Source: Taxawa tesnikishii (nom. ined.) (taxonomy: Eukaryota > Ascomycota > Dothideomycetes > Dothideales). From it: DNA of 64,000 nucleotides. The DNA is taken from NCBI GenBank assembly GCA_030247885.1, contig JAPDRO010000018.1, positions 641,099-705,098 of the forward strand, written 5' to 3'. A program made the translations under genes and the position numbers. Of this stretch, positions 51,325 through 64,000 are shown in pieces; within the stretch, counting starts at the first letter, position 1, and every line of letters starts with the position of its first letter. The notes under the pieces were generated by a model. That model was not told the origin of the DNA, searched no databases, and saw only the letters and a list, made by a program, of their open reading frames with translations.

Positions 51325-53520
51325 AATCCTAATAGGATACTTAATATAATCCTAAGGTATAAGTCCTTTAGTCTTATTAAAATCCCTAATAAAGTTACGA
51401 GGTATAGACTTAGTAAGTATACTATTACTATAGTTACTACTAGATCTTTTATACTATGCGTATAAATTAGTATAAGTATAAGAAATAATATAGTCGTATT
51501 ATACGCTATTATAAAAATACTTTATTTACTTAAGTTTCTTACTAGGCTTATTTAGCTAGGCCCTTACCTATATGTTTATTATATTAAAAGTCTTCTTAAT
51601 TACGCTTTATAACGCGCTATTAAGTAGTTTGTCTTTTAAAACCCTTCTATCTTAACTAACTATAAATACTAATATCTCTTTATTTTCTCTATTATATATA
51701 TTATAATACTATATATATAGGCTACTTACATTCCTAATTACGTAAGTAACCTTAGGCTTAATATTCTTTTAGAGCCTACTTAAAGACGTAACTTAGTAAA
51801 AGAATACCTTTTTACTAATCTTATTTATCTTTACCTTAATAGCCTTTAATATAAATATAGTAAGGGATAATAACTTACTACTTATAAGTATAAATAGTAT
51901 ATATAGACTAATACGCTAGTACTTAGGGTTTCTATTACTAGCGTTTATAGTACTACTAACTTAAGTAATAGCTATAAGGAGCGATAACTAAGAGGATATA
52001 ATAGCTATAGTAAGCGATAATAATTATCGAATATTTCTATTAATACCTTCGTTACTACTACGAAGCTTTAAACTAAATATATCTATAATACGTTAAATTA
52101 TATTAAAAAGGAATAAGGGTATAGTTTACCTTCTTTACTAAAGTTTAGTTTAGTAAGGTTATTACTAAAGATATAACGCTATTAAGGAGCGACGTATTAC
52201 TTAATCTTATTATTAACTACGCTAAGTTATTTACGCGCCTAATATGTTATAATAGTAAGGATATACTCGCGGCGAAGAGGCCTATTCTCGCGTTACTATA
52301 TATCTTAGTATCTATTATATATATACTATATAGTCTTACTACTTAGTATTTTCTACTTTAGTTTATACGTTATATTAGTCTCTAGTATACTAGTTATCTA
52401 TAAGTTAATAATATACTCTATAGTTACTACTAAATAGAATAGTATATATAGTATTATATCCTAGAAGAATTTACTAGTATCTTTTTAACTTATAAGGCTA
52501 CGACGTTTATAGTAGACTTTACTTATAATTTCGATAAATATCTTACTTAAAAAACGTTTCGCCTATTTAGTTATTTAGTACTTAGCGTAATAATATTAGT
52601 ATAAGTATTATAATAGTACCTTATCGCTATCTTAGTAAAGGAAAGCTTTTACCTTTCTTTCCTTATAAACTTATTACTTAAAGTAATTAGTATTATAAGA
52701 CGTATATTTACTAGTAGTATTTCGATTAATATAAGCGTTTATCTCTCTATAGGTAATAGTAAAGTAGTTATTACGAGCTATTCTTATAGATTTACGTATC
52801 TAAATCTACGTTAATACTTCGAGGATAACTAGAAATATTATATACTTTAAAAACTATAGCCTTATATAGAGCGTATAGTACTTCCGTCCTTAAGTTAACT
52901 TCTTACTTAATAAACTAGACGTCTCTCTATATATCTCGGATAAGTTTATTTATCTAGTATTTATTTTAAGATATTAAGTAAAATCTAGGGTATATTATCT
53001 CTTAAAAGAAGGTATAACTCCTAAAGTAAAAATAGATATAATACGAAGCTTAACTACTTCGTAAACTCGAAATATAACTAAAAGTAATAGTAACTTACTT
53101 TAACTAATAATTTATTTAAGGTCTTTTTTCCTTAATAAAAGAATACTAAAGGTTATATTATTTATATTTCCTAGCTCTCTTTTAGCTCTTAATAGCCTCG
53201 CTTAATACTATAGGATACTTAAATAAGACTTAAGTAGTTAGAATTATAAATAAATGTAACTTCTATTTAAACTAAGTTATAGTTAATATTATCTAATCCT
53301 TAAGATAACTTAGTAGTACTATAATATATAAGAGATTTAATAATATATACTAAAGATAAATAATATATCGAACGAATAGTTAGTAAAGTTTTACTAAGGT
53401 ATTAGGATATAATATAACAAAACGAACGCGTTAATATAGTTAAGTTAAATAAAAGAAAAGAAAGTTCTATATATATAGACGCGTCTTAACGCTTCCTTTA
53501 GCAATTTATAGTAGTCTAAG
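51325..53520. other. Unclassified RIP-mutated sequence
   Basis: About 2.2 kb, TpA-rich with dense stops in all frames. It is probably a further transposon, but no terminal repeat or protein motif could be recognised. Confidence 0.4.
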
Positions 53521-53529
53521 CTATTTACG

Positions 53530-54175
53530 TAACTCTTAGTAGCTATACTAATAGTAGTCTTAGTAACTTCTCTAAGACTTACTTTATTAGTAATCCTAGT
53601 AGTACTCTAATAGTAATCCTAGTAGTAATCTTAGTAGACTTTCTAGTAGCTTTCTAAGAATTACTCTATTAGTAATTTTAATAGTACTCCTAGTAGTAAT
53701 CCTAGTAGTAATTCTAGTAGACTTTCTAGCGACTTTTTAAGAATTACCCTATTAGTAATCCTAGTAGTAATTTTAGTAATACTCCTAGTAGACTCTCTAG
53801 TAACTTTCTAAGAATTACTCTATTAGTAATCTTAATAGTAATCTTAGTAGTACTCCTAGTAGACTCTCTAGTAACTTTCTAAAAATCGCTCTATTAGTAA
53901 TCCTAGTAGTACTCTTAGTAGTAATCTTAGTAGTAATCTTAGTAGACTTTCTAGTAACTTTTTAAGAATCGCCTTATTAGTACTCTTAGTAGTACTCTTA
54001 GTAAACTTTCTAGTAACTTTCTAAGAATTACTTTATTAGTACTCTTAATAGTACTCTTAGTAAACTTTCTAGTAACTTTCTAAGAGTCGCCCTATTAGTA
54101 ATTCTAGTAGTAATCTTAGTAGTACTCCTAGTAGACTCTTTAACGGCTTTTAAGAGTTACCTTATTAGTAATTTT
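53530..54175. repeat. RIP-mutated satellite built on 12-bp steps
   Basis: Units close to AGTAATCCTAGT and AGTACTCCTAGT are repeated, punctuated by a marker block TTTCTAAGAATTACTCTATT. The marker recurs near 53651, 53734, 53805, 53876, 53958, 54017, 54077 and 54149, at spacings of about 83, 71, 71, 82, 59, 60 and 72, all near multiples of 12. A step of 12 bp equals four codons, so the ancestor may have been a repetitive coding region. Confidence 0.8.
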
Positions 54176-54179
54176 AGTA

Positions 54180-56045
54180 GTTAGTATTAATAAAGTAATA
54201 TTACCTTTTCGACTATTATCTAGTTATAATACTTATTTATATAGTAAAACTTATATAACTACCTTAGTTAAGTTACTATAACTATTACTATTAAAGTAAG
54301 TATTATAGTAAGTATAAGCTAATATACCTTAAAATAAGTAGTTTAGTAAATTATCTTATATAAAGAGACTATAAGTACTATATACTTTATAGTTATATTC
54401 GTAGGTATTACTACCTTAAAGGTAGTAAATAATTATAATAAAAAGTAATTTAAAACTTACTTTCTATTAGTATTATATATTGAGAATATACTTAAAACTT
54501 ACTATATAAAACTTTAAGCTCTTTCCTTATAGATATCGAATTAAGATAAGTCTCTCTTAATTACCTTAATTATTAATTATAGTAAGCCTTTTATCTTCTT
54601 AATTTAATTCGATATAATTCGAGGCGCTATTTAATTCTTACTTTATAGTTAGTAATTCGACTAAGCGTAATAAGAGTAAATCTTCTAGGGCGTAATAATA
54701 CTTTATTACTTTTACTTTAGCTCTTATAATCTCGTACGTAAAGTTAATAGTCTTAAATAAACTACTCTTAAGCGTAACTTATATAGGCTCTATAACTAAG
54801 ATATAATAGTATCTTTTCTTATTATCTTTACTCTTTATCTTTACGCTTTTAGTTTTAGTTTTATCTTCGTCTTTATTACTAGCGCTACTAGTAGCTAGGC
54901 TAGTTATAGCGTAACTTATACTAAAAGTTAATTTAGTATTACTATAAGTAACTTTACGCTTATAACTATATTACTTAAAGTTTACGTTAATTTAGTATAT
55001 TAGCTTCTAAAACGACTCTTTTTCGTTATTTATTTATATAAATTATATAGTATCGTAAAATTAATATACTATATTATATTACTTTAGGACTATAGTAAAG
55101 ATTTTAACTTCGACGTAGTTTTATATTTCGATTATCGCAAAACTCTTTCTAGTAAAATATAACGCTACGAAGATTTTCTTAATAAAAGTATAGAAGTTAT
55201 AGTATCTCTAGTTACTTAGCTATAAGTCCTATATAATTATCTATGTAACTAATTAACTATTATTTTTACTAGTATTCTTTAACTTATAAGTTAAAGCTAT
55301 AGTTATATTAGGGAAGTATCTTTATAAGAGTATATGTAAGTATTAAGTAGAGGCTTAGTTAGTCTTCTTTAACTTATAAGGCCTTCGAAATTAGTCGTAT
55401 ACGCCGTCTAGCTATTACTTATATATTCTTCTTATTTAAATAGTAGATATTCCTCGATGTCTTATTTACATTCTTTATACCTTTATAATCTAATTATCTT
55501 ATTAGCTTCGTAGAAGATAGTCCTTATAAGTTACGCTAGTATATATAGGAACTACTATTAGTACTTTACTTTAACTTTATTAATAGTATAAACTTAACCT
55601 TTTATTTACTTACGTAAAAAGGCCTCTCTTATCGTATTAATTAGTAGTTTAATATTAGCAATTTTTATAAAGTAGTACTCTTTTCCTTTTCCTTTATTAT
55701 ATTATATATATAGTTAAGTAATAAAGTAAGGTATAATTATAGTAGGCCTTATTAATTTTTCCTTTATATCTTATATACTCGTTCGTTTATATCTCCTCTT
55801 TACCTTTATACTTTAATAAATATCTTAGTAAGATTACTAGTAGGGCTTACTTACTTCCTTATTTATACTTTATAAACTTATTTCTTTACTTTTATTTTAT
55901 ACTTCCTTACTATTATAAGATAATAGCTACCTAGTCTAAATAAATAGTTATATAACCTATTAAGCTAAGTAGGGAATCTCTTTATTTCCTAGCTACTATT
56001 ATAAATAGCTTAATAAATTAATAAGTTATAGTTAGTTTTACTATA
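54180..56045. other. Unclassified RIP-mutated sequence
   Basis: About 1.9 kb of TpA-rich sequence without recognisable ends or proteins, ending at family B copy 2. Confidence 0.4.
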
Positions 56046-57680
56046 ACGTGTTTTATTACCGAGCGGTCTACTATTACTAAGTAGTCCGCCCTTACTAACA
56101 TCGCGACTATTATAGACTATTACCTCCGTACTATAATACTATATAAAAACATACTCTAGTCTATAGTACTATTTAGAAGTATCGCTATTATCTAGATCTA
56201 CTATTTCTATAGTATAGGTGCGCGTGTTATAGCTAGTCTTACTACAATGTCTATAGTACCTCTACGTATATACCCTCTTCGTAGGCTATTTAGTACCCTC
56301 GTTACCGCTATCGTCCTTATTAGCTATTAAATCCTATACGTTACTTACTATGAGACTCTCCTCTGTCCGAATATACTTTCTTTTACGACTACGCTACTTT
56401 GTTAACGCCTTAATCGACTTCTAAAGACTTGCAATTTCCCTTGTCTATAACTCTAATTTATAACTTATAATAGCTATACCTTTAGTAAGCGAATCTATAG
56501 CTTATAGAAGAGGCGAGATAGGCGAATCCTATGTAGTCGCATACGCTTGTAGACTAGCGTTATTTACGCCTCTATTTCCTTTAGATTAGCTAGTATTTTA
56601 GACTCCCACGGGGTAACCTCTAATAGTACGAGTGTCGGCGTGCGAAGTACTACGTTAAGCTTCGATAGTACTTGCTCTAAGTTATAGGGAACTAATCTAG
56701 CGCCTCTAAAGCTTACCTAGATATTGTCCTTTATAATTACCTTGTCGAAAGCGATGCGAAAGGCTAGTAGGAAGGCCTCTTTCTTAACTTACGTAGTAGA
56801 GTACTATAACTAGCTATTAATCTCCGCGTTATATGCCCGCTTTAAGGGGCAAAATAGCCTACGTTAAGCGGCTATAATAAGTATAACGAGTATAAGGGTA
56901 TATAAAGAATAATAATCTTTTATTCTTTATAGTAGTTATAGAAGTCGTAACTATTATAGCTCTCGTAGCCGTCTACAATTAGTAGGTAGTATATACCTAC
57001 TTGACGCGCCTTTATATGCACGTCAAAGTACTTTAACTACTTTAGAGTAAACTTATTCGTCGTCTAGTTATTAGCGCTAGTCTTAAGTACCTAGTCGCGA
57101 GGTAGGTCTACGTACTAGCTCGATATAAGGACCTTACTACTAAAGATAATAAAGAGTAGGATAGCCTACCTAGTAGCGTAGATACCTTGGATAATTATAA
57201 CTTACTCCCGGTTACTTAGCTATACCTTTTTAAGATTACTTCGTTTCTTAAAGTTTATAAAGACTATTTAAGCGTTAATTATACTTATTATAAACCTAGA
57301 CTTATTAAAGTTTTATATATCTTCGTCTAGGATATTATACTTTTTCTTTATCTTTTTAACTAGCTTAAACTAAGGCGTTATAATATGTATATCTTTATTT
57401 AAGGCTTACTAACGATTATATAAATAACTACGTCGAAGCTTAACTTCCTTAGTACGTATTTTAAACCTATTTACTTGGTACTTACTAATAGGTCCTTTAC
57501 TACGCGTAGTAAGTAAATCGTTAGCTATTTTTTACTATAGTCTTTATAGTACTTATTTCTTATAAGTTTAACTTAAGTATACGTACTACTATTACTTCCT
57601 CTTTTATTTTCTTTAACTTCTTCGAGTTAGGCTTATAGTTACGTTATATAAGCTTTTTATCGCGTCGTTATCTACTCGTA
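56046..57680 (-). mobile_element. Family B pogo transposon, copy 2, RIP-destroyed and 3'-truncated
   Basis: Starts after TA (56044-56045) with ACGTGTTTTATTACC and runs parallel to copy 1 with almost no indels for about 1.63 kb. It then stops at about 57680, short of the right inverted repeat. Differences from copy 1 are mostly transitions. Confidence 0.8.
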
Positions 57681-57696
57681 GAAGTCAAACGAATGG

Positions 57697-57787
57697 CCAC
57701 GATTCGTTTGCTTTTGCGTGGGCTATAACCTAAGGGTTAGAGGAACGACCACGATTCGTTTGCACCTGTTGACCACGATTCGTTTGC
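57697..57787. promoter_or_regulatory. Three copies of a 15-bp motif upstream of the telomeric helicase
   Basis: CCACGATTCGTTTGC occurs exactly at 57697-57711, 57749-57763 and 57773-57787, all on the + strand. An inverted partial copy (CAAACGAATGG) begins at 57687. The cluster lies 340-430 nt upstream of the helicase ATG, at the first non-RIP sequence after the repeat block. A regulatory role is inferred. Confidence 0.45.
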
Positions 57788-58128
57788 CTTCCCGAGCCCC
57801 AACCTTCTCGAAACCCACACACTATACTGTCATAAGGTTATTCTCTCTGCATGCCAAACACCACTCATATATATGCCATATACATGGAACATCAAGGGCG
57901 GCGGTCTTAAAAGGAAAAAGATGAGGCGCCTTGTGCATAGGCCACTCCCCGCATTTTCGCAGGGCGGCCTCTCCAAACAAAGACCAGCCCTGTGTCTATG
58001 CGACGTGATCAGTACGCTCTAAACAATTGATCCTGAGCATCACATGGATCCTTTAAATCCTTAGAAAGGTAATATAGCTATGTCTGGCCTCGCAAGTATG
58101 GCAGCCGTGAAGGCAAGCCAAGACTCAG

Positions 58129-61100
58129 ATGGATGATTTTCATCGTCTCTTCCAAGTAGTCGCCCAGCACCGCATCCTTGTTTGCATCCATTGTCAGTAT
58201 GCAGTCGTACCTTCGCAGCTCGCCAAACATCTTCGTGTGCATCACAAGCGTCTCAGCTTACAACAACGGCGGGACATTATTGCCAAAGTCGGGTCTTTTA
58301 CCGAACTTGCGCAAGTCGAGGCAGATGTCATCTATCCAGCAGCAACAGAGCCTCCCGTAACGGGACTTCCGGTGTACTTCGACGGCTTGAAGTGTGGCGG
58401 GAAAGATGGCGAAGGCAGGCTTTGTCCCTATATATGCCGCACTCCGCGTGGCATGCAAGATCATTGTGAGCGGCAACACGGCTGGGTCAACGGACAGAAG
58501 CGAGGCGGCGATGCTCGTTTGAAGCAGGTCCATACCCACAACAAGCTGTGGTCTTGCGACCGCGCCTGTCAGCGTTTCTTCAAGGTCGGAAGCTGGCAGA
58601 GGTACTTCGAGGTCCAAGTAGCGGACCTGGAGATTTGCGGTCGGAGGCGAGCCGGTCACCAGCGTGACTTCTTCCGGACGCAAGAAGAAGACATCCTTCA
58701 GGCAGAGCGCGACGCCGCATCTGCGGCCAACCGTGTCCGCGGATTCGACGAGCATCGTTCTACCGTGGTACCATGGCTCAGAGAGACCGGCATCGTCGAC
58801 CATGTCTGCGGCTTGAAGAAAGACGAGATCCGAGCAGCGATCGCCGTGCCCTCGCGAGACGAAGGATGTCCTCTGCGGACGATCGTCGATGCGATGGAGG
58901 ACGTGCTCAGGGAGGCGCACGGCTGGTGTTTCGACGGACCCGACTGTATGCTCACTTGGCCATGTCGCGTCGTTCTCAGTCGGTTCCAGTCGTCGCAGGT
59001 CGAGTCGATTGGGAAGGTTCGGCCGTTCGATCCTTACAAGGAGCCCGGCACGCTCAAGGTCTACTTCAAGCTGGCGTCACAGTTCCTGTCGTACCTGGAG
59101 CGAGTGGCGATCTGTGACGAGTACCACTTCAGTGCTGACTCGGAGGAGACGATCCGGCCAGAGGACGTGATCGAACCGACGGACAAGCAAAGGGTGGTGT
59201 GGCATAACCTCCGTCGGTTAGCAGAACGGGGAGCGACGGGCACGGGTGAAGGGATCAAGGGCCAACTGAGAGATGGGCTGGTTGAGTTATGGATGCTCGT
59301 TATCCGTCACACTACCGGAGCCCGACGGTACCGCTCGCCAATAGTGAGCTTCTGCGCGATGCTAAGCATCAAGCCGTCTACGCAAGGCTGGATGGAACCC
59401 GGCAACTTCAACAGCAGTCTGTCTGCGATGATATGGGTCGCGCAGCTGCTGATCTTCTATGACTGTGCTCGCAAAGAGCGGCAGGGTGGGGAGAAACGCT
59501 CGCGCTCGTCAAGGAATGCTGTGAGAGTTATCTGCAGCAGACGGCCGAGACGCCGATGGGGAGATACTCCGCTGGCGCCTGTTGCTGTTTCGCATCTCGA
59601 AGGACAGCGTGGGTGATCATGAGGCCTGTTGGGACGAAAGCGAACAGGTCCTGACATACGAAGATACAGAGCTGCGTATGGACCAGATCCCCACGCTACT
59701 GCTCTCCGAATACCGTGAGTGCGAACGGCTACTGTACGACGACTTGCTGCTGGGTCAGAAGGACCTACGCCGCATGCAGTCTTGGGCGCTTAGAGATAGC
59801 GGCAACGTCGATACCGTCGGCTGGAGCTTGATCCAGCATCGTGACAACGCTCTCCTGCTGAGGGGACGGACAAAGCTCTGTTGGCCGCCGTTGAGCGTTC
59901 CGAGCAACTGTGCCGCCTTTTCCTTCAGCAAGACCGTCGATCAGCGAGCGGCTTCGTTTGGAGGGACAGTGCGCTAGCCGGCTACGAGGCAACTGTGCAG
60001 GAGTTCTTGAAACGCTTGTGTGTCCTCGTTCACATCAGTGGCGGTCAGCCCATCCGCGAAAGCGAGTTCTTCTCCATGACCTGGCGGAACACGCAACGAC
60101 GACGATCCATCACACTCCGCCACGATCGTGTCATGATACATGTCAAATACCACAAAGGTCAGCAGCAGACGGGCAGGTACAAGGAAAACATCCGGTTTCT
60201 CGCCAATCCGGTGGGCGACCTGTTGCTGGATTACCTCGTCTATGTCGTGCCGCTACGACAGGTCTTTCTGCGGCAGCAATCACCAAAGGCACTGCTCTCC
60301 TCGTTCTTGTGGGAGAAAGACGGAAAGGTGTGGGGCGAAGGACGGTTGAGTCGTTGTCTGGAGGAAGCCAGTGCTCGGGCGTGCACACCCCGGCTTCACG
60401 TTTCCAACTGGCGCCAGATGAGCGTGGCCATCGTCAAGACCAAGTTTGCGAGCAACATAGGCTGCTTCGAAGTCAACGAAGACGACGAGGACGCCGAGGA
60501 GATGGAGGAGGATATCCGAGCGATGACGAGACAGCGCAACCACAAGACACGCACGGTCAACAGGGCGTATGCCAATCAGACGGGAGCGACCTTCGGCAAC
60601 GTGTGGGACGGGCTGATCCGAATGGGACTTCGCGCGTCAACGTTGTGGCAGGACTTCTGGGGAGTGGAGACGATGCTAAAAGGCAAGAAGCGAAAGAGGG
60701 ACGGAGAAGAGTGTCGACTGAAGGAACGACTTGCCAAGGGTGTCTATCGGCCCCGCAAACCGTGGTCGGCAGAGGCTCTGCTGGAAGGGCTCAGAAAGCT
60801 CTACGGCAACCAGAGAATGATGTGGAAATCGAGGGAGCAGGAACAGACCCTCACCACGATCATGTCGTGGACGGAGCAGGTGGTGGCCATCTTGCCAACC
60901 GGAGCCGGAAAGAGCCTGTCCTTCATGTTGCCGTGTACGCTGCCTGATGCCGGGATCACCATCCTCATCGTGCCGCTCGTATCCCTTCGGGCAGACCTGC
61001 TTCGGCGGATACGGGAACTGAACATCGCTCACCTCGAATGGTTGCCGGGAGAAAGTCGAGAAGCATCGCTGATAATCGTCAGCGTTGAGGCTGCGGCCAC

Positions 61101-62561
61101 AACACACTTCACGAAATACGCACGAAGCCTGATCGTCCAGCAGAAACTCGATCGAATCGTGATCGACGAATGCCACCTGACGGTGACTGCCGTTGACTAC
61201 CGATCGAGCATCGTCGACCTTACTGCGGTCCGCAATCTCAGGACGCAGTTTGTCTACCTGACAGCCACACTGCCTCCGTCCATGAAGAGGAGTTTGAGGA
61301 GCGCAACTACCTCTACCGTCCGACAACCATCAGAGCATCGAGCAACCGACCCAACATATTCTACATGGTCCGCAGGGCAGACCCTCGCAAAGGCAGCCTT
61401 CTGGAGCAGAGTGCGGTCGAAGCGCAAGACGCGTGGCGCGACTCCGACCTGTTCGATCATTCCCGTGACAAGATCGTCCTATACGTCCGAACGTGTGAGG
61501 ACGCGGACAGCCTGTGCCAACTGCTTGGTTGTGCTGCATACACCGCAAAGAGCGGAACGCCGGAACAGAAGAAGCTCATCGTTGATCGCTGGATCCATAC
61601 CTCCGACCGCCCGTATCTCGTTGCCACGACCGCTCTTGCCGAAGGCTTCGACCACGCTCATGTACGTCTGGTCATGAACGTAGGGGAGCCGGACTCGTTG
61701 GTCACCTTCGCGCAGGAGTCGGGTCGGGCCGGCCGCGACGGGATGGAGGCGTACTCGATGGTTCTCCTGCCGGCGACGTGGCAGGCACAGCTCGAAGACG
61801 ACGTCGACGTCGGTTCGGAGCAGACGGGCAGCTGCAGGGACGACGTGTCACTTCGCAAGCGACGGGACAAGCAGGCCGTGCACAAGTACTTACGAGGCGA
61901 GCAATGTTTCCGAACTTCGCTGAGCGAACACCTCGATCTCGCTCAGCACCGAAGGTGGTGCATGCCGGAAGACGTGGCTTGCGACGTCTGCAAAGCGGCT
62001 CACGAGGATCCAATCGCAGCCTCGGACGCGACAAGACGGCAGACCGCCCACACCGGACTCGATCTCATCCAGCAAGAGCGGCTGCAGGCTCACTCCGAAC
62101 TTGTCAACTACCGTCTGGACCTGGCCAGCGTGCGCGGGACATGCTTGCTCTGCCGTGCGATGGACGAGGAATGGAAGCACGAGTTCTCCAAGTGTGCCCG
62201 GCGGCATGAGGTGTTTCACGAGCGCAGTCGAGTACGGCAGCGGCACGAGACACGCGGACGAAAGTGGTTGCGTCCGTACACGAGCTGCTTCTGGTGCCTA
62301 AACCCTCAGTCCATCTGCCAAAGGGCTGAGCTCAGCAAGACCAGTAAGGAAGAAGCGTGTGAGCACGGAGACGTGGTCCTGCCGCTCTGTTACGGGATAT
62401 TCGTGAGCGCCGGAGGAGCCAGATGGCTAGAGGACCACTTCCGGCGCAGATTCGCCGGGGTGGAGGATTTCTTTGACTGGTTGGGAGAGGAGACAAGATT
62501 TGGAGGCGGAATGGCGGTACAGGGAGTCAGAGTAGCGGCAAAGGCTTTATTGTCGTTCTAA
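58129..62561 (+). CDS. Telomere-linked RecQ-type helicase with OrsD-like zinc fingers
   Basis: About 1478 aa in one exon. N-terminal zinc-finger region like OrsD/DUF3505: CIHCQYAVVPSQLAKHLRVH and CPYICRTPRGMQDHCERQH. The middle contains VHISGGQPIRESEFFSMTW and IHVKYHKGQQQTGRYKENI, found in related fungal RecQ-like proteins. C-terminal helicase: motif I VAILPTGAGKSLSFMLP, motif II VIDECHLT, motif III YLTATLPP, motif V ATTALAEGFDHAHVRLV, motif VI FAQESGRAGRDG, then cysteine-rich segments (CDVCKAAHED, CLLCRAMDEEW). Four -1 slips (59489, 59559, 59863 in GGGG; 61284) each need one G. Such genes lie next to telomeres in many fungi; telomere maintenance or subtelomere recombination is the supposed role. 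It is not RIP-mutated. Confidence 0.87.
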
Positions 62562-62601
62562 GATAGCGAGGTCAGAGACAACTAATAGCAACGACCTATA
62601 A

Positions 62602-62697
62602 GAAAAAACAGAAGAAGTAGTGAAGGAAAAAACAGAAGAAGTAGTGAAGGAAAAAACAGAAGAAGTAGTGAAGGAAAAAACAGAAGAAGTAGCGAAG
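62602..62697. repeat. 24-bp tandem repeat x4
   Basis: Four copies of a 24-bp unit that starts GAAAAAACAGAAGAAGTAGT and ends GAAG, the last with one change (AGCGAAG). It starts 40 nt after the helicase stop codon. Confidence 0.95.
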
Positions 62698-63171
62698 GAA
62701 AAAAATAGATAATAGCTTAAGAGGTAAATACGTTAGGTCCTTACTAGCTCCGACAAGCAAGAAAGAGTCCTAACAAAAAGTAAACGCCTAATAATAAGTT
62801 AGTTAGAGTAGTTAAGAAGAAGTCTAATAGATAAGGAAAGTAACTTAGTTAAATAGACTTAAGCTAAGTTATAAAGAAGTTAAGAAAGAATCCTAAAGTA
62901 TAATAAAGTTCTTCTTAAACCTTAGGGATTATATAGGATAATATAGAACTAAGAGTTAGGGTTTAGATAAATAAGGGTAAAAAGTAAGTATATAAATGAA
63001 GAAGACGATAATCATAGAAAAGCTAAGTTTTAAAGAAAGGAACAATATTTCTCTATATAGGATTTTCAAAAAAAAAAGGTAATATTTCTCTCTATAACAA
63101 GTATAATATTTTAAAGAGAAAAAGATATATCTCTTAAGATAAAAAAAGATAAAAGAAAGAAAAAGAAAAAC
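62698..63171. other. A-rich subtelomeric sequence with few C
   Basis: AT-rich, no gene. C residues become rarer toward the telomere: about 10 per 60 nt near 62701-62760 and 1-6 per 60 nt between 62821 and 63180. Confidence 0.7.
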
Positions 63172-63844
63172 TAATAGATTTAATAGTAAAGTAAAAGAAA
63201 TTAAAGTAAAATAGTGGAATATAAAAAGAAAAAGGAGATTAGTTAAGAATAAGAGAAAAAAAGTAAAAAGGAAAGTAAAGTAAGGGAGGATAATATAAAA
63301 GAAAAAGAGAAGATAATAAAAAGAAAAGGTAATAAAAAGAGAAGGAATAAAATAAGTAAGTTAGAAAATAAGAGTTATAATAAGGAAGGAATAAAGAAAG
63401 AAAGTTTAAGTAATAGGGATATAATAATATAGAAATAGAATAAAAGTAAAAAATAGGAAAATAAGAAGAGATAAAATAAAAGAAAGAAAAGAAATAAAAG
63501 AAAAAAGTTAAAATAAGAGATTTATAGTAAAAGATAAGGAGTAAAGTAATAGAGATATAGTAATATAAGAATGGAATAATAAATTAGTAGAGTTAAAGTA
63601 ATATTTAAAAAGAATAAGAAAGTAATAAAAATATAGTAATAAAGTAATAAAATAATAAAGTAGTAAAGTAGTAAAGTAATAAAATAATAGAGTAATAAAA
63701 TAGTAGAGTAATAGAATAGTAGAGTAATAGAGTAGTAAAGTAATAAAGTAGTAGAGTAATAAGATATAAGAAGAATAAAAGAAGTAGAGAGATAAAATAG
63801 AAAGAAAGAAATAAAGTAGAAAGAGAAAAAAACATTGAAAAAGA
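63172..63844. other. C-free strand tract next to the telomere
   Basis: By direct reading the + strand has a single C (63832) in this tract, while G is frequent. The sequence is a mixture of AAG, TAG and TAATA-like words with no perfect period. Apparent open frames here, such as a Leu/Tyr-rich one on the minus strand, are by-products of the composition. Confidence 0.85.
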
Positions 63845-63924
63845 GAGTGAGTGAGTGAGAGTAAGAATGAGTAAGAATAAGAGTGAGTGAGTGAGTGAGT
63901 GAGTGAGTGAGTGAGTGAGTGAGT
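63845..63924. repeat. (GTGA)n array adjoining the telomere
   Basis: Tetranucleotide GTGA/GAGT repeats with a few GTAAGAATGA interruptions, ending in GTGGG at the telomere junction. C is absent here too. Confidence 0.9.
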
Positions 63925-64000
63925 GGGTTAGGGTTAGGGTTAGGGTTAGGGTTAGGGTTAGGGTTAGGGTTAGGGTTAGGGTTAGGGTTAGGGTTAGGGT
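63925..64000 (+). repeat. Telomere (TTAGGG)n
   Basis: About 12.5 perfect TTAGGG units run to the window end, G-rich strand 5'->3' outward, so this is the right chromosome terminus. Confidence 0.98.

What the first reader, a model, noticed from the sequence alone, without database searches (positions are those of the whole stretch)
63172..63924. A 750-nt tract with almost no cytosine on one strand, fused to the telomere
From 63172 to the telomere only one C (63832) is found on the + strand, while G stays common. RIP acts on both strands and would remove G as well, so it cannot explain this. The + strand is the telomeric G-strand, the one left single-stranded when ends are resected. Strand-specific cytosine deamination on that strand, or growth of the tract by copying a C-free template, would both give this picture. 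C content also falls stepwise from 62700 outward.
Basis: partly seen in the sequence, partly recalled or inferred. Interest (0 to 1): 0.75.

Follow-up and report, generated by a model that had tools for sequence, protein, structure and literature searches.

The report
Cytosine-free tail of chromosome-end helicase element
Most chromosome ends in this fungus-like genome carry the same helicase element, whose last 750 bases before the telomere contain virtually no cytosine on one strand; a very purine-rich strand altered by an old repeat-mutating process would explain most, but not all, of that.

Summary
In detail: 63172-63924 holds 1 C (at 63833), 163 G, 154 T, 435 A. It is not a change made at this end. 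It is the noncoding tail of a 6.25-kb telomere-linked RecQ helicase (TLH) element, 57672-63924; I count 51 near-identical copies, every one seen at a contig end or beside one telomere-telomere gap. Forty-three aligned tails show no minority C-to-T change, so deamination at individual ends is not supported. Other ends carry different TLH-type tails with the same habit: purine-rich on the G-strand (0.68-0.83) and poor in TpG; one family is C-free for 848 nt or more. A context model predicts 23-30 C against 182-201 G, not 1 against 163. A strand-specific C deficit therefore remains (p = 0.002 here, 5e-4 in the second family), unexplained. TLH elements are known; a purine-biased yeast precedent is recalled, not read. 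Near-total C exclusion in unrelated tails is the new point.

The parts
57672..63924 (+). TLH element 'A' (my label), a discrete unit of about 6.25 kb with an exact 5' edge, abutting the telomere
   Evidence: 19 full-length copies read (18 left ends plus the window), all starting CTACTCGTAG and with different flanks
57697..57787 (+). three copies of CCACGATTCGTTTGC near the 5' edge (57697-57711, 57749-57763, 57773-57787); the first overlaps the right arm of a short inverted repeat
   Evidence: read by eye
58129..59616 (+). ORF with OrsD (PF12013) domain, N-terminal part of the TLH gene
   Evidence: E 1.5e-23
59881..61677 (+). ORF with DEAD/DEAH helicase domain, RecQ type
   Evidence: E 1.4e-13; best solved-structure relatives RECQ5
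61365..62561 (+). ORF with Helicase_C domain, end of the gene; reads toward the telomere
   Evidence: (E 1.7e-11)
62602..62704 (+). 24-bp tandem repeat, 4.3 copies, purine-rich, unit still with CpA and TpG
62705..63171 (+). proximal tail: AT-rich, TpG-depleted (1 TG, 24 GT), still with C
63172..63832 (+). C-free run of 661 nt
63542..63762 (+). degenerate 8/16/32-bp array (TAAAGTAA type) inside the C-free run
63834..63924 (+). terminal GAGT-rich cap, C-free but with TpG not depleted (15 TG, 16 GT)
63925..64000 (+). telomere (TTAGGG)n
56001..57671 (.). RIPed copy of a dispersed repeat, cut at the element's edge; other copies run about 250 nt past this point

Best explanation
The tract is the telomere-facing noncoding tail of a TLH subtelomeric element that has been copied onto most chromosome ends, so the lack of C was inherited from one ancestral tail and did not arise at this end. 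[Shown] The tail is purine-rich on the telomeric G-strand and bears the RIP mark (TpG lost, GpT kept), while the helicase gene beside it does not. [Inferred] RIP (CpA to TpA, with slower change at CpT and CpG) acted on an already purine-rich ancestral tail. On that strand most C are followed by a purine and are removed, whereas the C opposite most G is followed by a pyrimidine and survives. [Inferred] The gene stays clean because copies with a RIPed gene are lost and clean copies spread between ends. [Inferred] Slippage then extended C-free units such as TAAAGTAA and GAGT. [Shown, unexplained] Some 22-29 further C expected from context alone are missing, including every C before a pyrimidine.
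For: Element on about 51 ends: 40 of 40 scored places at contig ends, of 63 candidates; 40 scored of 51 candidates: 39 at contig ends, 1 beside the C2 gap; 43 of 56 end sequences by one probe; 19 full-length copies, 20 variant rows, none C>T. RIP mark in the tail only: A gene TG o/e 1.09, proximal tail 0.05; a second TLH (contig C27) gene 1.16, tail 0.23. Purine skeleton: the last four 200-nt blocks before the telomere are 74-81% purine, against mean 0.499, sd 0.046, maximum 0.637 for 800-nt windows in 1-57000. Context model: expected C 23-30 and G 182-201 in the tract. RIPed B copies differ almost only by transitions: 155 of 155, 169 of 170 and 88 of 89 differences in the three pairs. Three PF00145 cytosine methyltransferase loci in the genome.
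Against: The model leaves 22-29 C unexplained (observed 1; expected 23-30, sd 4-5), by my arithmetic about three quarters of them CpG and therefore strand-neutral, the rest strand-specific (0/17, p = 0.002). The model also fails elsewhere: the C27L tail has more C (171-172) than the 120-134 predicted, and more G (614 against 410-449). No unmutated ancestor of this tail was found, so RIP in its past is inferred from dinucleotides. Current copies show no fresh RIP. Part of the tract is tandem array whose unit lacks TpG anyway. RIP confined to the tail needs selection to have kept the gene clean, which was not tested.
Confidence: 0.55

Rival explanations
1. The tail is simple-sequence DNA grown by slippage from units that never contained C (TAAAGTAA, GAGT, AAAGATAAAAAGAG, TAGTAG), so no mutation process is needed.
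For: TRF finds 8/16/32-bp units over 63542-63762, shorter arrays in 63282-63506 and GAGT at 63881-63925. The terminal caps of both tail families are simple repeats, C-free in A and with a single C in C2R and C15R.
Against: 63172-63540 shows little purine/pyrimidine periodicity (autocorrelation at most 0.12) yet is C-free with 1 TG against 17 GT. The B tails differ from each other almost only by transitions, so they were mutated, not just grown. All four tail types read are purine-rich on the same strand; four cases are too few to test formally.
Confidence: 0.25
2. Strand-specific cytosine deamination on the telomeric G-strand (single-stranded after resection, or displaced in telomeric RNA R-loops) removed C, possibly long ago in the master copy.
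For: C before a pyrimidine is rarer on the G-strand than on the C-strand: 0/17 against 146/461 in the tract, 0/22 against 165/541 and 12/88 against 348/887 in family B. Against the context model the C deficit grows toward the telomere in both A and B. Two sites (63243, 63912) with T in most copies and C in a few could be shared old C-to-T changes.
Against: No minority C-to-T among 43 tail copies or in 19 full elements. The clear context mark (TpG loss) is C-to-T on the other, C-rich strand. Purine excess cannot come from deamination. The C27L tail has more C than the model predicts.
Confidence: 0.12
3. Selection keeps C off the G-strand because a structureless single strand next to the telomere helps the element attach to, or be copied between, chromosome ends.
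For: Tails without detectable similarity share the bias. The tract folds at -1.9 kcal/mol against -71.8 for an equally long RIPed control. Copies are almost identical, which fits frequent copying between ends.
Against: The folding z-score against dinucleotide shuffles is -0.07: composition alone gives the lack of structure. Contig C27's tail still has 9% C and bears a telomere. End C32L has a telomere without such a tail.
Confidence: 0.15
4. Assembly or sequencing artefact.
For: Homopolymer-length differences between copies look like read noise, and contig C2 contains an N-filled join of two telomeres.
Against: The same sequence is found at about 51 places, with different flanks in the 19 whose flank was read.
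Confidence: 0.01

Closest known systems
Telomere-linked helicase (TLH) elements of ascomycetes, e.g. Colletotrichum higginsianum DHX_G198 and relatives (PMC5576322, passages seen) and Fusarium oxysporum TLH regions (PMC12857005, passages seen)
   Same: RecQ-type helicase gene; DUF3505 domain in C. higginsianum (I recall that PF12013 was DUF3505); in C. higginsianum one copy per end, same orientation, full-length copies only at subtelomeres; several kb long
   Different: Here a sharply defined 5' edge on unrelated flanks and a C-free, purine-rich tail. The passages seen do not mention strand composition; 'purine' does not occur in the main text of PMC5576322; it was not looked for in PMC12857005
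Distal subtelomeric R element of Kluyveromyces lactis with strong purine/pyrimidine strand bias (Nickles and McEachern 2004; recalled only, not found)
   Same: As recalled: a telomere-adjacent element shared by most ends, with purines concentrated on one strand
   Different: As recalled it is in a yeast without RIP and lacks a helicase gene; near-total loss of C is not something I recall for it. Not compared by sequence
Y' element of Saccharomyces cerevisiae (recalled; mentioned in PMC4522978 passages)
   Same: Helicase-bearing subtelomeric element copied between ends
   Different: Recalled as flanked by telomeric repeats on its proximal side; none seen by eye in the roughly 100 nt printed for each of 19 flanks here
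MoTeR/FoTeR telomeric retrotransposons (PMC8381367 and PMC12857005, passages seen)
   Same: Elements abutting telomeres
   Different: No reverse transcriptase domain in the four ORFs searched and no telomere repeats seen at the proximal edge

Membership tests
TLH subtelomeric element | RecQ-type helicase gene next to the telomere | tested here: met
   DEAD and Helicase_C hits; RECQ5, RECQ1 and BLM among solved relatives
TLH subtelomeric element | OrsD/DUF3505 domain, as in C. higginsianum | tested here: met
   PF12013 E 1.5e-23
TLH subtelomeric element | present at most ends, same orientation, no interstitial full copies | tested here: met
   40 of 40 scored places at contig ends, of 63 candidates; 39 of 40 at contig ends and 1 beside the telomere-telomere gap in C2, of 51 candidates; unscored candidates not seen
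TLH subtelomeric element | internal TTAGGG motifs, as in C. higginsianum | tested here: inconclusive
   no tandem pair TTAGGGTTAGGG outside the terminal telomere; single TTAGGG at 62922 and 62956 seen by eye
Y' element | telomeric repeats at the proximal junction (recalled) | tested here: not met
   none seen by eye in the roughly 100 nt printed for 19 flanks
MoTeR/FoTeR retrotransposon | reverse transcriptase ORF | tested here: not met
   no such Pfam hit in the four ORFs given
K. lactis R-type purine-biased element | strong purine bias of the G-strand, adjacent to the telomere, on most ends (recalled) | tested here: met
   79% purine in the tract; interior maximum 0.637 per 800 nt
K. lactis R-type purine-biased element | sequence homology to the R element | not testable with these tools
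   no yeast sequences in the collections; paper not found in the library
RIP-mutated DNA | CpA/TpG depletion with TpA excess | tested here: met
   core: 2 TG (o/e 0.08), 44 GT, TA o/e 1.43; CpA cannot be judged because there is no C
RIP-mutated DNA | transition differences against an unmutated copy | tested here: inconclusive
   family B copies differ from each other by 155/155, 169/170 and 88/89 transitions, but neither tail has an unmutated homologue at hand
RIP-mutated DNA | RID-type methyltransferase in the genome | tested here: inconclusive
   three PF00145 loci; not assigned to RID or DIM-2

The most novel reading that the evidence does not exclude
Exclusion of C from the telomeric G-strand is a selected, convergent trait of TLH-element tails: different TLH lineages in one genome have each built a 0.75-1 kb structureless, C-free strand ending in a G-rich cap that is ready for telomerase and for pairing with other ends. 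The tail would then be the working part that lets the element land on broken chromosome ends and spread.
Probability: 0.15. Interest if true: 0.75.

Novelty: new variant of a known kind. Interest (0 to 1): 0.42.

Why it matters
It shows how a strand could lose one base almost completely without strand-specific chemistry: a purine-biased backbone plus context-dependent C-to-T mutation does most of it in the model. It also shows that purine loading of the telomeric G-strand recurs in TLH-type tails without detectable similarity in one genome, with a small strand-specific remainder that sister species could resolve. The exact element edge sitting on a truncated repeat suggests that TLH elements are added to broken chromosome ends as units.

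Tried and rejected
Per-end deamination: 0 of 31 variant rows in 43 aligned tails is a minority C>T; many of those rows are alignment shifts beside indels, and rows are polarised by majority only, so the two T-majority/C-minority sites (63243, 63912) could be old C-to-T changes. Common ancestry of the A and B tails: alignment scores exceeded dinucleotide shuffles (the B ends and marginally C32L, not C27L) and reversed controls, but with third-order Markov controls and parts tested apart, 9 of 10 comparisons gave fractions from 0.07 to 0.78 and the tenth 0.025, so it is not established. Selected lack of structure: the fold z-score is -0.07. A tyrosine-recombinase-like reading of the middle of the TLH protein (59881-60750; H-x9-Y recalled from memory, seen by eye also in contig C27) found no such Pfam hit to E 10 and no solved-structure hit; the single-sequence fold is worthless (mean pLDDT 32) and was not searched. 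It stays an untested lead. Relatives in viral contigs: none. The yeast precedent was not found in the library. The organism was not identified; 'fungus' is inferred from TTAGGG telomeres, RIP-like DNA, OrsD and TLH. An earlier count said that other repeat copies run about 380 nt past the junction; recounted it is about 250 nt.

Full report
Observation. The tract 63172-63924 has 435 A, 1 C, 163 G and 154 T. The lone C is at 63833. The C-free run is 661 nt; elsewhere in the window, apart from the 167-nt part running into the telomere, the longest run lacking C or G is 88 nt. Given the 54 C of 62561-63924, finding at most one in the last 753 nt has probability 2.8e-18. The decline from 62700 is not smooth: from 62601 it runs 5, 16, 6, 5, 11, 3, 0 per 100 nt.

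It belongs to an element on most ends. The window is the right end of contig C10 in a 29.4-Mb, 34-contig assembly. The tail 62560-63925 matched 40 scored places (of 63 candidates) at 98-100% identity, all 40 at contig ends. The 5' end of the element matched 40 scored places of 51 candidates; 39 are near contig ends and one lies behind the N-gap in C2 where two telomeres face each other. Candidates that were not scored were not seen. I read 57 of 68 contig ends plus both sides of that gap (window). One probe found the tail in 43 of the 56 sequences held; C9L carries a variant of it. Seven right ends not read (C21, C24, C29, C30, C31, C33, C34) match. That gives 51 copies by my count. Eight ends that were read have neither a telomere nor this tail (C8L, C25L, C26L, C28L, C7R, C17R; C23R and C32R in the 1 kb seen). 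C5L carries the tail, but its contig stops before a telomere. The right ends of C25-C28 were not read.

Edges. Nineteen full-length copies (18 left ends and the window) start at exactly the same base, with different flanks and no shared target visible. At C10 the flank is a RIPed copy of a dispersed repeat that stops at the junction, while other copies run about 250 nt further. This looks like addition of a unit to a broken end (inference). The distal junction is GAGTGAGTGGGTTAGG in 37 of 43 telomere-joined copies counted, with 7 to 14 GAGT units.

Gene. ORFs 58129-59616, 59881-61677 and 61365-62561 carry OrsD, DEAD and Helicase_C domains; the closest solved relatives of the second are RECQ5 helicases. 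Open-frame length differs among copies. I did not try to decide whether this is biology or read error.

No change at individual ends. In 43 aligned tails there are 31 variant rows, none a minority C>T. Those I judge not to be alignment shifts are G>A at 63040 (2 copies) and 63216 (2), and T>C at 63243 (4) and 63912 (3). Rows are polarised by majority only: at the last two sites C may be the older base, which would make the common T a shared, older C-to-T change. Nineteen whole elements give 20 rows, 3 in the gene, 3 in the proximal tail and 14 in the tract, none C>T. Copies are therefore young or kept uniform by copying.

Other tails. Ends C2R, C15R, C16L and the left side of the C2 gap carry a different tail (B), C-free for 905, 848 and 966 nt in the three complete cases (the last including its telomere); the left-gap piece is only 681 nt long and is C-free for 541 of them. 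C16L and C2R carry stop-ridden TLH matches about 4 kb from the end, reading toward the telomere. Contig C27 has a TLH gene with clean base composition whose last long frame ends about 2.4 kb from its telomere. C22R has C 48 and G 261 in its last kb, with stop-ridden TLH matches about 8 kb inside; that its tail belongs to that gene is inference. C32L has a telomere but no long C-free tail. blastn with the low-complexity filter on found no similarity between the tails, and A and B are not shown to be related beyond word composition. Purine fractions are 0.79 in tail A, 0.83 and 0.82 in B (C16L, C2R), 0.71 in C27L and 0.68 in C22R (from the counts), against a mean of 0.499 and a maximum of 0.637 for 800-nt windows in 1-57000.

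RIP mark. In the tract core there are 2 TG and 44 GT; B (C16L) has 0 TG and 44 GT in its last 800 nt, C22R 3 and 81, C27L 29 and 126. Genes are clean: TG o/e 1.09 in A and 1.16 in C27. The terminal cap of A is not depleted (15 TG, 16 GT in 63834-63924). B copies differ from each other almost only by transitions: 155 of 155 (C16L-C2R), 169 of 170 (C16L-C15R), 88 of 89 (C2R-C15R), mostly A/G after A, that is CpT on the C-strand.

Why a C-free strand. In RIPed DNA of this genome a pyrimidine followed by a purine is C in 0.137 of cases, and one followed by a pyrimidine in 0.395 (trained on four RIPed stretches and 17 element flanks with GC below 0.40, the one left-end flank above that being left out). 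Transitions do not alter the purine/pyrimidine skeleton. Applied to the skeleton of the tract, the model predicts 23-30 C and 182-201 G, depending on context length; 1 and 163 are seen. Skeleton plus context thus gives 6 to 9 G per C. By my arithmetic about three quarters of the missing C are CpG, which is strand-neutral. A strand-specific part remains: C before a pyrimidine is 0/17 on the G-strand against 146/461 on the other (p = 0.002); in B it is 0/22 against 165/541 (p = 5e-4) and 12/88 against 348/887 (p = 7e-7). Sites are treated as independent in these tests, which repeats partly violate. The model is not good everywhere: the C27L tail has more C (171-172) and more G (614) than predicted (120-134 and 410-449), and the proximal tail of A has slightly more C than predicted (53 against 45-48).

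Consequence. As single-stranded DNA the tract is almost structureless (-1.9 kcal/mol, against -71.8 for 53172-53924), though no more so than its shuffles. Whether that matters to the element is speculation.

Known kinds. TLH elements at all or many ends are described in C. higginsianum and F. oxysporum, and subtelomeric RecQ-type genes in Mycosphaerella graminicola and Agaricus bisporus (passages of PMC5576322, PMC12857005, PMC4522978, PMC7473861). A telomere-adjacent element with purine strand bias in K. lactis is recalled, not read. Nine paper searches listed no title or abstract that reports C-free TLH tails; the library omits most subscription journals.

Noticed in passing
window 59881-60750: Middle of the TLH protein resembles the C-terminal part of a tyrosine recombinase by a recalled motif (NHKTRTVNRAY; contig C27 THGSELARLRY). 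No such Pfam or solved-structure hit, fold uninformative.
   Followed up: partly
window 57672-57787: The element's 5' edge carries three copies of CCACGATTCGTTTGC, one overlapping an inverted repeat, like binding sites for a replication or transposition protein.
   Followed up: no
L074 (contig C2, 864500-866500): Two telomeres face each other across 500 N, so contig C2 is probably two chromosomes joined by scaffolding.
   Followed up: partly
L046 (C16L), telomere junction: B-family end that lacks the GGT-rich cap seen at C2R and C15R and begins its telomere with TTTAGGG variants, as if broken and healed.
   Followed up: no
L038 (C8L), last 2 kb: Contig ends without a telomere in a GC-normal, TE-like sequence whose RIPed relatives include window 56-57.7 kb.
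   Followed up: no
L049 (C19L) and L053 (C23L): A few bases of non-telomeric sequence (AGCAATACGT...) follow the telomere repeats at the contig end, probably sequencing adapter.
   Followed up: no
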